Assembly (NCBI RefSeq): GCF_011043775.1
Contig: NZ_JAAKXY010000002.1
Span: forward strand, 310,001-374,000
Reading direction: 5' to 3'
Length of the DNA: 64,000 nucleotides
Source: Natronolimnobius sp. AArcel1
GTDB taxonomy: Archaea; Halobacteriota; Halobacteria; Halobacteriales; Natrialbaceae
This document shows positions 9,643-59,446 of the stretch, one piece after another. The notes beneath the pieces were generated by a model. The model was not told the DNA's origin. It saw only the letters and a program-made list of their open reading frames with translations, and did not search any database. The position numbers were made by a program, and so were the translations under genes. Position 1 is the first letter of the stretch; each line of letters begins with the position of its first letter.

Positions 9643-9726
9643 TATAGTAGCCACTGAAAGTCAGTGCACACCCAATCGCATGACTGCTATACGATTGGTG
9701 TGTAAACAGTTTCAGTTGTTACTATA
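9643..9726. repeat. 84-bp palindromic element, copy 1
   Basis: The element starts TATAGTAGCCACTGAAAGTC and ends with CAGTTGTTACTATA. The arms are imperfect inverted repeats of about 35 nt around a central loop (CATGACTGC), with CACACCCAATCG on the left pairing with CGATTGGTGTG on the right. Copies at 15225-15308 and 59363-59446 have the same length and conserved ends. It lies between the amidotransferase start and the SDR stop. It could be a MITE-like element or a structured intergenic repeat. Confidence 0.85.
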
Positions 9727-15224: not shown

Positions 15225-15308
15225 TATAGTAGCCACTGCAAGTCAATGCACACCTGATCGCCAGACAGGTCGGCGGTCAGTGTGTAAATAGTTGCAGTGG
15301 CTACTATA
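15225..15308. repeat. 84-bp palindromic element, copy 2
   Basis: The element starts TATAGTAGCCACTGCAAGTC and ends GTTGCAGTGGCTACTATA, and is exactly as long as the copies at 9643 and 59363. The outer 20 nt of each arm pair almost perfectly. The inner arms differ from copy 1, but each side has changed in a way that keeps pairing in part (CACACCTGATCGCC against GGCGGTCAGTGTG). It lies in the 402-bp gap between the DUF368 and Fic genes and runs directly into a partial copy. Confidence 0.85.
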
Positions 15309-15333
15309 GTAACAACTGGAACTGTTTACTATC
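15305..15333. repeat. Partial palindromic element abutting copy 2
   Basis: TATAGTAACAACTGGAACTG followed by TTTAC is nearly identical to the reverse complement of the right arm of copy 1, then homology stops. It shares the terminal TATA (15305-15308) with copy 2, as if an element inserted at, or recombined through, the TATA end of another. The rest of the gap to 15462 contains only the short direct repeats noted separately. Confidence 0.65.
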
Positions 15334-15420
15334 GAAACAACCTCACGGATTGAAACGATCAGTGACACTCTCCCAGTCAAGAGTTCTTGTCCGCCGATGA
15401 CGCAGCGCATTTTGAAACTA

Positions 15421-15482
15421 CTCTAAGTCAATTCATAACCCATTCAGTAGACTTAGATAGGAGTGAGTACAACTCTAAGTCA
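15421..15482. promoter_or_regulatory. Repeated CTAAGTC sites at the fic start (candidate operator)
   Basis: CTCTAAGTCA occurs at 15421-15430 and again at 15473-15482 directly before the internal ATG of fic, with the inverted form GACTTAG at 15450-15456 between them. Three copies in 62 bp around the start suggest an operator, perhaps for the protein's own C-terminal winged helix. No regulator gene is adjacent. The function is inferred from repetition alone. Confidence 0.4.
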
Positions 15483-16626
15483 AATGGATCCAGACGATTT
15501 TGAGGATGGACCGGGGACGATCACCCCGTATGAAGGGCTTCCCTGCTATCGTCCAGCAAGCCTTCCCCCGGAGATTGAGTACACCGATGATATCATCCGG
15601 GTATACGGGGATGCTCAGTACGCATTAGGGCGGCTGGCGACACTTCACCGGGACGTAGATAACGAGAACCTATTGATCGCCCCGTTCGTGGTGCGTGAAG
15701 CAGCAATGAGTTCACAAATTGAGGGAACGAACGTTACAGTCTCGGATATCGTCCTTCACGATGTCGACGGGACTCCACAACGATCTGCTGCTGAGTCAGC
15801 TGATGTTCGCGAAGCGTACAACTACGTTGACGCAATCCACGAGGGCTTTGAGCGAATTGAGGCTGGGGAGTCGCTTTCGGTTGAGCTAATTTGCGACCTC
15901 CACGAGACGATGCTGAAAGACGTTCGTGGTGAGGAAAACCGCCCTGGAGAACTACGAGATGTGCCGGTCTATATTGGTTCTCCTGATAGATCAGCGCAGT
16001 CTGCCCGGTTCATTCCAGCCAATCCTCAGACAGTTGACCTCCTGTTGGAACAGCTCGTATCTTACATGAACGGCGGGTCGTATCCGTCGGTAGTTGACGT
16101 GGCGATTACGCACTACCAATTCGAGACGATTCACCCGTTCCGGGATGGGAACGGTCGCCTTGGACGACTGCTGATCATGTTACAACTGTATGATGCTGGA
16201 CTACTGCCGAAGCCGTATCTCTATCTGAGTGCGTACTTCAACAGATACCGGCAACAGTACCTTGATTACTTGCTTGCGGTGAGTCGTGATGGTAACTGGG
16301 AGCAGTGGATTACGTTCGTCCTGAACGCAATCGCTGAACAAGCGATTGATGCCTATAATTGCGGCATAAAACTCGTCGGTCTTCGGGAACAGTATTACTC
16401 TCCGTTCCCGAACAGTCCTGCTGTTCGAGACGTCGTTGATTTCATCTTTGAGGAACCGTATCTCACGGCTCCTCGAGCAATCGACGTCACCAACCGGTCA
16501 CGCCAGGCTGTCTACGACGCGATCAAAGCGCTCGAAGCAGCAGAAATTATCGAGGAAATCTCGGGTTCGGAACGATATCAGGTATACAGAGCACCGGCAA
16601 TCCTCAGTATCGTGGAGTCACCCTAA
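15463..16626 (+). CDS. Fic family protein with N-terminal inhibitory helix and C-terminal winged helix
   Basis: The protein has 387 residues from a GTG at 15463, or 380 from the ATG at 15484. The Fic core motif HPFRDGNGRLGR (catalytic His, phosphate-binding GNGR) lies near residue 225. An inhibitory motif SSQIEGT near residue 86 precedes the core, as in class II Fic proteins that are auto-inhibited. Residues about 320-380 form a winged-helix-like domain (VTNRSRQAVYDAIKALEAAEII). Fic enzymes usually transfer AMP from ATP to hydroxyl side chains. Codon use is more AT-rich than in neighbours, consistent with transfer. No antitoxin gene is adjacent. Confidence 0.9.
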   Translation: MSTTLSQMDPDDFEDGPGTITPYEGLPCYRPASLPPEIEYTDDIIRVYGDAQYALGRLATLHRDVDNENLLIAPFVVREAAMSSQIEGTNVTVSDIVLHDVDGTPQRSAAESADVREAYNYVDAIHEGFERIEAGESLSVELICDLHETMLKDVRGEENRPGELRDVPVYIGSPDRSAQSARFIPANPQTVDLLLEQLVSYMNGGSYPSVVDVAITHYQFETIHPFRDGNGRLGRLLIMLQLYDAGLLPKPYLYLSAYFNRYRQQYLDYLLAVSRDGNWEQWITFVLNAIAEQAIDAYNCGIKLVGLREQYYSPFPNSPAVRDVVDFIFEEPYLTAPRAIDVTNRSRQAVYDAIKALEAAEIIEEISGSERYQVYRAPAILSIVESP

Positions 16627-16764
16627 CAGTTGGATTACGTAACCAATGAAGTAGGTTATATGTCGGCCGTGAATAATGAACGCTATAACTGCTAACACAC
16701 AACAACTGGGCGAATTGGGGCGGGAACTTTTTCTCGCTTCGGTTTGATAGCTCCGCGAGAAGCA

Positions 16765-21587: not shown

Positions 21588-22679
21588 TTACTTCGGGAAC
21601 GACTCTGGCAGCGCCGCTGGCTGCGAACAGCCATGCTCGAGCGTGACGTGACTCTCCTGCTCCGCGGCCGTCCGAAGCCCGGCCATGATCTCGAGGCCGT
21701 GCAGCGCGCGCTGGCCGCTGGTGCGGTGACTCCAGTCGTCGTCTCGAGCCGCTCGCGCGAGGTCGGCGACGCCCGCGCCGCGACCGGCGGTGTAGTCGTG
21801 GGTGTGCTCGAGGGTCTCGAACGCGTCGCGGCTGCTGTTTCGAACGCGGACCTCGCCATCGAAGTTGTTCGGATCGGGGACCTGTAGCGTGCCCTCGGTG
21901 CCGTAGATTTCGAACAGCGGGAACGGCCCCGAGGAGCCACCCGTCGCGTCGAAACTGAACTGGAGATTCGCGATTGCGCCGTTGTCGAAGGTGACGACGC
22001 CAGCCTCGTGTGTTGGCACCTCGACGTCGATTGTCTCGCCAGCGCGGTCGCCGCTGCCAATCGTGCGCTCGTCGAACGCCTGCCCGACGGCCCCCGTGAC
22101 GGTTGTCGCCGATCCCAACAGTGTGATGAGCGCGCCGACGTAGTACGGCCCCATATCGAACAGTGGCCCGCCACCCTCCTGATAGTACAGATCCGGATTC
22201 GGGTGCCACACCTCGTGACCGCCGGTCATCCAGTGGGCCGTCGCCCCGATTGGCCGGCCGATCCGTCCCGACTCGAGTGCTGCGCGTGCAGATTGGATAC
22301 CCGCACCGAGGACCGTATCCGGCGCGGAGCCGACCAGCTTGTCGGTTTCCGCGGCGGCCTCGAGAATCCGCTCGGCGTCCGCGACGGTCGTCGCGAGTGG
22401 CTTCTCGGTGTAGACGTGGTTGCCGGCCTCGAGCGCATCGACGAGCACGTCGGCGTGGACGCTCGGCGGCGTCAGATTGATCACGATGTCGATATCGGGG
22501 CCTGCAACGAGGTCTGCGACGGGCCGGGCCTCGAGGCCGTGCTCGTCGGCTTTCTGTTCGGCGAGGTCCTGTTGCAGATCGCCACAGGCGACGATTTCGT
22601 AGTCCTCGAAGCGGTCTTTCGCGGCAAAGTAGGCGTCGGCGATATTGCCACAGCCGACGACGGCGGCATTGAGAGTCAT
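21588..22679 (-). CDS. Gfo/Idh/MocA family oxidoreductase (second copy)
   Basis: The protein has 363 residues. The Rossmann motif VGCGNIADAYF is at the start and the signature TEKPLATT lies near residue 94. HWMTGGHEVWHPNPDLYYQEGG and FDMGPYYVGALITLLG match the C-terminal substrate domain, and the conserved D-x-x-x-H-type region is recognisable. It is not a close duplicate of the copy at 1290-2264. The first 23 codons and upstream DNA are repeated, with differences, at about 23089-23226. Confidence 0.9.
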   Translation of the reverse strand: MTLNAAVVGCGNIADAYFAAKDRFEDYEIVACGDLQQDLAEQKADEHGLEARPVADLVAGPDIDIVINLTPPSVHADVLVDALEAGNHVYTEKPLATTVADAERILEAAAETDKLVGSAPDTVLGAGIQSARAALESGRIGRPIGATAHWMTGGHEVWHPNPDLYYQEGGGPLFDMGPYYVGALITLLGSATTVTGAVGQAFDERTIGSGDRAGETIDVEVPTHEAGVVTFDNGAIANLQFSFDATGGSSGPFPLFEIYGTEGTLQVPDPNNFDGEVRVRNSSRDAFETLEHTHDYTAGRGAGVADLARAARDDDWSHRTSGQRALHGLEIMAGLRTAAEQESHVTLEHGCSQPAALPESFPK

Positions 22680-22746
22680 GCGCTCGCGTTTCCGTTCGGT
22701 GCGGTAAAGTGAACCGATTCGATTCGTGGCGGACGGTGGTCACATC
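22611..22746. repeat. 5' end of Gfo gene duplicated downstream (left copy)
   Basis: This tract covers the first 23 codons of the 22-kb Gfo gene and about 67 bp upstream of its start. It matches 23089-23224 with a constant offset of 478 bp and roughly 85 percent identity by eye. The copies enclose AT-rich DNA with a small membrane-protein gene. Confidence 0.8.
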
Positions 22747-23088: not shown

Positions 23089-23157
23089 TCGGTCTTTTTC
23101 GGCAAAGTAAGCGTCGGCGATGTTGCCACAGCCGACGACGGCGGCGGTGAGAGTCAT
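23089..23157 (-). pseudogene. Fragment of a Gfo/Idh/MocA gene (start codon plus 22 codons)
   Basis: From an ATG at 23157 the frame reads MTLTAAVVGCGNIADAYFAE, nearly the same as the intact gene's start at 22679, then homology ends near 23089. Upstream DNA to about 23224 also matches. The differences suggest that the fragment came from a related strain rather than a recent tandem duplication. Confidence 0.75.
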
Positions 23158-23252
23158 GCACTCACGTTCCCGTTCGATGCCGTAAAGTGAACCCATTCGT
23201 ATAGTGACGGACGCCAGTCAGGTCACTGGCTGCCACCAGTGTTTCAACACTT

Positions 23253-59362: not shown

Positions 59363-59446
59363 TATAATAGTCACTGCAAGTCAGTGCACACCTACTCGCA
59401 CGATGGCTGTGTGAGTCGTGTGTTCACAGGTTCAGTTGTTACTATA
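59363..59446. repeat. 84-bp palindromic element, copy 3
   Basis: It begins TATAATAGTCACTGCAAGTC and ends GGTTCAGTTGTTACTATA, with the same length as copies 1 and 2. The central arms CACACCTACTCGCAC and GTGTGAGTCGTGTG pair imperfectly and differ from the other copies. It lies between a small membrane gene and a HalOD1 gene, in convergent position. Confidence 0.85.

What the first reader, a model, noticed from the sequence alone, without database searches (positions are those of the whole stretch)
9643..9726. A family of 84-bp TATA-ended palindromes
Copies at 9643, 15225 and 59363 are all exactly 84 bp. The outer arms are conserved while inner arms differ between copies but still pair in part, which suggests selection for folding. 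TATA at both ends could be a duplicated palindromic target, as for TA-targeting MITEs, or part of the arms. Short palindromic intergenic repeats are known from haloalkaliphilic archaea, so the family may be partly described.
Basis: partly seen in the sequence, partly recalled or inferred. Interest (0 to 1): 0.65.

Follow-up and report, generated by a model that had tools for sequence, protein, structure and literature searches.

The report
Haloarchaeal 84-bp foldback mini-transposon (MITE)
The 84-bp palindromes are copies of a tiny transposon that makes no protein, is most likely moved by the transposase of an IS630-type insertion sequence, occurs in dozens of copies per genome across many salt-loving archaea, and keeps a hairpin shape through paired changes.

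Summary
The three window copies are exactly 84 bp. They belong to a family with 43 strong covariance-model sites, plus about 15 weaker, deleted or enlarged copies, in the same genome. The family occurs in 80 of 194 sampled genomes of the class (28 of 65 genera). Paired changes support the hairpin in outer and inner arms, while an unpaired internal loop is nearly invariant.

TATA is not the duplicated target. At two clean empty sites one extra TA is gained (target C-TA-G, net gain 82 bp), so TATA is a TA duplication plus the TA of the element's end.

The partner was found: 1059-bp IS630 elements (ISNma7/ISNpe3 type) with ends TATAGTARNCRTTAGAA and the same C..G flanks. Three contigs of the window's own assembly end inside identical copies of one. 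A profile of the IS630 ends, run over all TA sites in the window, ranks the palindrome ends first to fifth.

Best reading: an IS630-dependent MITE, a haloarchaeal counterpart of RUP and Correia elements. It is a new member of a known kind. No transposition assay exists. Two Halomicrobium sites do not fit a simple empty site, and end similarity beyond base 8 is moderate. What maintains the inner hairpin is open.

The parts
9643..9726 (+). 84-bp MITE copy, subfamily CAATCG; left outer arm/TIR 9643-9657, right outer arm/TIR 9712-9726; duplicated TA at 9643-9644 and 9725-9726
9665..9704 (+). inner stem-loop of this copy (alignment columns 23-40 pair with 46-62), with compensatory changes between copies
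15225..15308 (+). 84-bp MITE copy, subfamily TGATCG, nearly perfect outer arms
15305..15332 (-). about 28-bp remnant of a second copy in opposite orientation that shares the TATA of the first (TATAGTAACAACTGGAACTGTTTACTAT)
   Evidence: and direct reading of the sequence
59363..59446 (+). 84-bp MITE copy, subfamily TACTCG, more decayed (weak fold)

Best explanation
The palindromes are a non-autonomous transposable element (MITE) moved in trans by an IS630/Tc1-mariner-type transposase of the ISNma7/ISNpe3 group. The transposase recognises the terminal TAGTA-R... repeats, cuts the element out and joins it to a TA, preferably in CTAG, and the TA is duplicated. Shown here: copy number, exact length, terminal repeats, TA duplication at two empty sites, C..G flanks like those of the IS630, the IS630 in the same genome, and the hairpin with paired changes. 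Inferred: that this transposase acts on the element, and that it moves by cut-and-paste. The copies sit mostly between genes, plausibly because the net gain of 82 bp shifts reading frames. The foldback shape is kept either because the folded strand matters for transposition or RNA, or because hairpins correct themselves during replication; this step is not resolved.
For: Many copies: 45 matches and 43 strong CM sites in the own genome; 80 of 194 genomes and 28 of 65 genera of the class, in five families. Empty sites: Haloarcula hispanica pHH400 copy 233083 against H. sinaiiensis and H. marismortui (AAAC-TA-GAAGT versus GAGC-TA[..]TA-GAAGT); own-genome copy C7:16248 against G001, ungapped when one TA is restored. 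IS630 ends: 69 loci in genome contigs with recognisable ends, 49 of them exactly 1059 bp, consensus TATAGTARNCRTTAGAA, C before in 52 and G after in 53; the MITE has G after in 71 and C before in 50 of 90. A position matrix of 126 IS630 ends ranks five palindrome ends 1-5 among 3139 TA sites of the window. Three contigs of the own assembly (C1, C9, C16) end inside identical IS630 copies with TIR TATAGTAGGAGTTAGAA. DDE_3 and HTH domains in the IS. Inside coding-like ORFs: 8 of 50 copies against 56% of random positions.
Against: Beyond base 8 the ends differ from the IS630 consensus (own-genome copies score about 0 bits or below over bases 8-17; Haloarcula copies 2-4.5 bits). MITE and DDE_3 presence do not correlate over 16 genomes of the family (p 0.6); several MITE-rich genomes show no DDE_3. 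Two Halomicrobium sites lack 86 bp rather than 82 in strain LC1Hm, which needs a later deletion between flanking TC or GC repeats. The right-G and left-C preferences are unequal (p 0.001), unlike the IS630. No transposition was observed.
Confidence: 0.85

Rival explanations
1. It is a MITE, but it is moved by a different, unsampled transposase (another IS630 subgroup, or another TA-targeting family), and the ISNma7 group only shares the terminal TATAGTA.
For: Only bases 1-8 and a few inner positions agree; MITE-rich genomes without a DDE_3 hit exist.
Against: Same CTAG target and same seven terminal bases; ISNma7-type IS present in three or more identical copies in the own genome; other IS630 types found here have different ends.
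Confidence: 0.2
2. It belongs to the orphan small mobile repeats (SMR-A/B) of Haloquadratum: terminal repeats unrelated to transposons, no target duplication, inserting in palindromes of IS605-type elements.
For: Similar size and copy number; haloarchaeal; no coding capacity (PMC3119063).
Against: TA duplication at two empty sites and ends shared with an IS630.
Confidence: 0.05
3. It is a REP/RAYT-like or IS200/IS605-derived hairpin moved as single-stranded DNA by a Y1 transposase.
For: Strong hairpin, conserved asymmetric internal loop, GTAG near the foot.
Against: Terminal inverted repeats and a TA duplication, which Y1 elements lack by established knowledge; IS630 partner.
Confidence: 0.03
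4. Its present role is a folded RNA (terminator, processing site or small RNA) kept by selection, with transposition only its origin.
For: Inner-arm covariation outside the IS630-like end; internal-loop bases T19, C20, G67 and T69 invariant in 72 distinct copies, and A21 and T68 in at least 70; intergenic bias.
Against: No Rfam family found; no clear preference for convergent gene ends in the crude context count (18 tandem, 10 convergent, 7 divergent); hairpin self-correction or TIR co-evolution could give paired changes.
Confidence: 0.2

Closest known systems
RUP of Streptococcus pneumoniae (IS630-Spn1 dependent; review PMC2229807)
   Same: About 100 bp, no ORF, TA target, terminal repeats similar to an IS630 in the same genome, about 100 copies between genes
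   Different: Different sequence and domain of life; here a CTAG preference and a strongly covarying hairpin with enlarged-centre forms
Correia/NEMIS elements of Neisseria (PMC2229807, PMC2649163)
   Same: TIR begins TATAG (own knowledge), TA termini, short and long forms differing by an internal insert, hairpin transcripts
   Different: Sequence unrelated beyond the first bases; IHF and promoter functions not tested here
ISNma7/ISNpe3-type IS630 insertion sequences of haloarchaea
   Same: Terminal TATAGTAR, C-TA-G target, same hosts, three or more identical copies in the own genome
   Different: 1059 bp with a transposase in two frames; inner TIR bases differ; interior unrelated
SMR-A/SMR-B small mobile repeats of Haloquadratum walsbyi (PMC3119063)
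   Same: 80-110 bp repeats with inverted ends in a haloarchaeon, many copies, no gene
   Different: SMRs reported to have no target duplication and no related transposon; this element has both
Sulfolobus MITEs such as SMN1 with ISC1048 (own knowledge, not tested)
   Same: Archaeal MITE paired with an IS630-family IS
   Different: Unrelated host and sequence

Membership tests
IS630-dependent MITE | Short, non-coding, many copies with fixed ends | tested here: met
   78 of 90 copies exactly 84 bp
IS630-dependent MITE | Duplicated TA at the insertion site | tested here: met
   Two clean empty sites; two Halomicrobium sites discordant and read as later deletions
IS630-dependent MITE | Terminal repeats shared with an IS630 element | tested here: met
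   Bases 1-8 agree, partial agreement inside; window ends rank 1-5 of 3139 TA sites
IS630-dependent MITE | Partner IS in the same genome | tested here: met
   Three contig ends inside identical ISNma7-type copies; full-length element in same-genus G001
IS630-dependent MITE | Transposase acts on the element | not testable with these tools
   Needs an excision assay
Haloquadratum SMR-A | No target duplication | tested here: not met
   TA duplicated
Haloquadratum SMR-A | Ends not related to a known transposon | tested here: not met
   IS630 ends match
Haloquadratum SMR-A | Inserts in near-terminal palindromes of IS605-type elements | not tested
   HqIRS sequences are in supplements that could not be read
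REP/RAYT or IS200/IS605-derived repeat | No terminal inverted repeats and no target duplication | tested here: not met
   TIRs and TA duplication present

The most novel reading that the evidence does not exclude
The element carries a selected, folded-strand function (an RNA or single-stranded hairpin with a conserved asymmetric internal loop TCA/GTT) beyond serving as an IS630 substrate, spread as a mobile regulatory hairpin over at least 28 haloarchaeal genera.
Probability: 0.2. Interest if true: 0.65.

Novelty: new member of a known kind. Interest (0 to 1): 0.42.

Why it matters
It assigns one of the commonest short repeats of haloarchaeal genomes to a transposon family, with a candidate transposase in the same genome. 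That makes the stated enigma of how such haloarchaeal mini-repeats move directly testable, and gives a marker (present or absent sites) and a mobile hairpin that may alter nearby genes. I found no description of it in the papers searched.

Tried and rejected
TATA as a 4-bp target duplication: rejected, since the empty sites keep a single TA. A 2-bp duplication outside TATA, suggested by two Halomicrobium sites (TC..TC, GC..GC): over 90 copies flanking dinucleotides match no more than chance (10 against 7.8, p 0.24), so read as later deletions between short repeats. Tandem copies in G020: scaffold joins with an N between. Viral carriers: no match in phage records or in IMG/VR with a gapped pattern. 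G001 as source of empty sites for the three window copies: flanks too diverged or rearranged. pHH400 against Haloarcula sp. CBA1115: all copies shared, no information. Genus g9 site (L072): the gene left of the element is deleted, no clean empty site. Association of MITE and DDE_3 presence over 16 genomes: not significant. Literature: no paper naming ISNma7 and none combining haloarchaea, MITE and IS630; the Natrialba magadii genome paper mentions no such repeat.

Full report
Observation. The three window copies are exactly 84 bp, begin TATAGTAGCCACTG (one slightly decayed) and end ...TACTATA. In the own genome (4.56 Mb, 22 contigs; window = C2:310001-374000) the first copy finds 45 matches, the second 61 counting both strands. 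A covariance model from 33 copies gives 43 distinct sites above 75 bits and several weaker ones. Seven further forms have the same ends and enlarged centres of 151-220 bp. The centre of one of these matches hairpin repeats elsewhere in the genome that are not inside the 84-bp element, so these look like nested repeats in the loop.

Distribution. Among 40 relatives, 17 genomes of the same family have matches. In a class-wide sample 80 of 194 genomes and 28 of 65 genera match at E <= 1e-6, in five families. Annotated plasmids of Natrialba, Natronorubrum, Natrinema, Haloarcula, Halomicrobium and others carry it, nearly always where no gene is annotated. Phage records have none.

Structure. The consensus is an outer stem (columns 1-15 with 70-84), an unpaired 7+7 internal loop (16-22, 63-69) and an inner stem-loop (23-62). 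In the own genome 61 cells change on both sides and keep pairing, against 20.7 in shuffles and at most 3 in slid controls. Over 34 copies of several genera the numbers are 53 against 14.7 and at most 6. Changes include C-G to T-A and G-C at 12/73, A-T to C-G at 15/70, and C-G to T-A at 31/55. In 72 distinct copies T19, C20, G67 and T69 of the unpaired loop are invariant, and A21 and T68 nearly so. Cells count sequences, not events, and subfamilies are inherited, so the number of independent paired changes is perhaps eight or more (my estimate).

Insertion site. Haloarcula hispanica pHH400 carries nine full copies, all shared with strain CBA1115. H. marismortui and H. sinaiiensis have the homologous region and are empty at copy 233083: GTGTCGAAAC-TA-GAAGT against GCACCGGAGC-TA[element]TA-GAAGT. 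The own-genome copy C7:16248 lies in a sequence with homologues in G001 and G033; with a single TA restored it aligns to G001 without a gap across the junction. Both give a net gain of 82 bp with target C-TA-G. Over 90 copies the base after the element is G in 71 and the base before is C in 50. Two Halomicrobium mukohataei copies are absent in LC1Hm together with one copy of a flanking TC or GC; I read these as losses between short direct repeats flanking a palindrome, since dinucleotide repeats are not enriched overall.

Partner. A scan for DDE_3 transposases in relatives found 1059-bp elements with ends TATAGTAGTCGTTAGAA or TATAGTAACCGTTAGAA; the domains are HTH and DDE_3, and annotated relatives are called ISNma7 and ISNpe3. 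Of 80 loci from public genomes, 69 gave recognisable ends, 49 of them 1059 bp long, with C before in 52 and G after in 53. A position matrix of 126 such ends, scored on all 3139 TA sites of the window, ranks palindrome ends first to fifth; the matrix carries most of its agreement in bases 3-7. The Haloarcula version (TATAGTAGCCATTGAAA) is closer to the IS630 (TATAGTAGCCATTAGAA is within its consensus) than the own-genome version. In the own assembly three contigs (C1, C9, C16) end inside one identical IS630 sequence, with TIR TATAGTAGGAGTTAGAA and flanks A, G and G: the IS is present in at least three identical copies, which probably broke the assembly.

Mechanism. IS630/Tc1-mariner transposases excise their element and join it to a TA target that becomes duplicated (established knowledge of the family; abstract of PMC2170065). 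The element has the ends, the target and a resident enzyme, so mobilisation in trans is the best-supported account. The copies avoid coding sequence (8 of 50 against 56% of random positions by a crude gene call). The inner arms lie outside the IS630-like ends, so their paired changes are not explained by end recognition alone. Either the folded strand is selected, or palindromes correct themselves during replication; the invariant unpaired loop argues mildly for selection.

Known or new. The best match in kind is RUP of pneumococcus, proposed to be moved by IS630-Spn1 at TA targets, and Correia/NEMIS of Neisseria with its short and long forms (PMC2229807). In haloarchaea the Haloquadratum study describes MITEs, PATEs and orphan SMRs (PMC3119063); the present element fails the SMR definition on target duplication and on related transposon. 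No paper found describes this family. It is therefore a new member of a known kind, though an entry in ISfinder or a non-open paper cannot be excluded.

Noticed in passing
window 15305-16716: The 15225 copy lies at the exact left border of a ~1.4-kb segment carrying a Fic-like gene (15463-16626 +) that same-genus G001 lacks; a 28-bp remnant of a second copy shares its TATA.
   Followed up: partly
G000:C16:1-200 (L238): A 3.6-kb contig starts with CRISPR-like repeats (GTTGCAACAGACCGAAAACCCAGTACGGGATTGAAAC) and ends in the IS630.
   Followed up: no
L229/L233 and L232/L234: Two Halomicrobium sites where the element plus one copy of a flanking TC or GC is missing in LC1Hm, as expected from slippage deletion of a palindrome between short direct repeats.
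   Followed up: partly
G000:C1:280746-280879 and similar: Branched hairpin inserts in the loop of long forms; related hairpin repeats elsewhere in the genome (C3:288297, C6:454085, C6:288627, C5:539235), perhaps a separate IS605-type (PATE-like) repeat.
   Followed up: partly
L072 (G009:C15:33028-33111): A copy marks the breakpoint of a deletion in a transporter-like gene that is complete in related genomes.
   Followed up: partly
window 22612-22742 and 23090-23220: A 131-bp direct repeat, 85% identical, 478 bp apart.
   Followed up: no
G020:C84:74447-74619, C50:7395-7570, C15:51838-52010: Apparent tandem copies separated by 5-8 bases containing an N: scaffold joins, not biology.
   Followed up: yes
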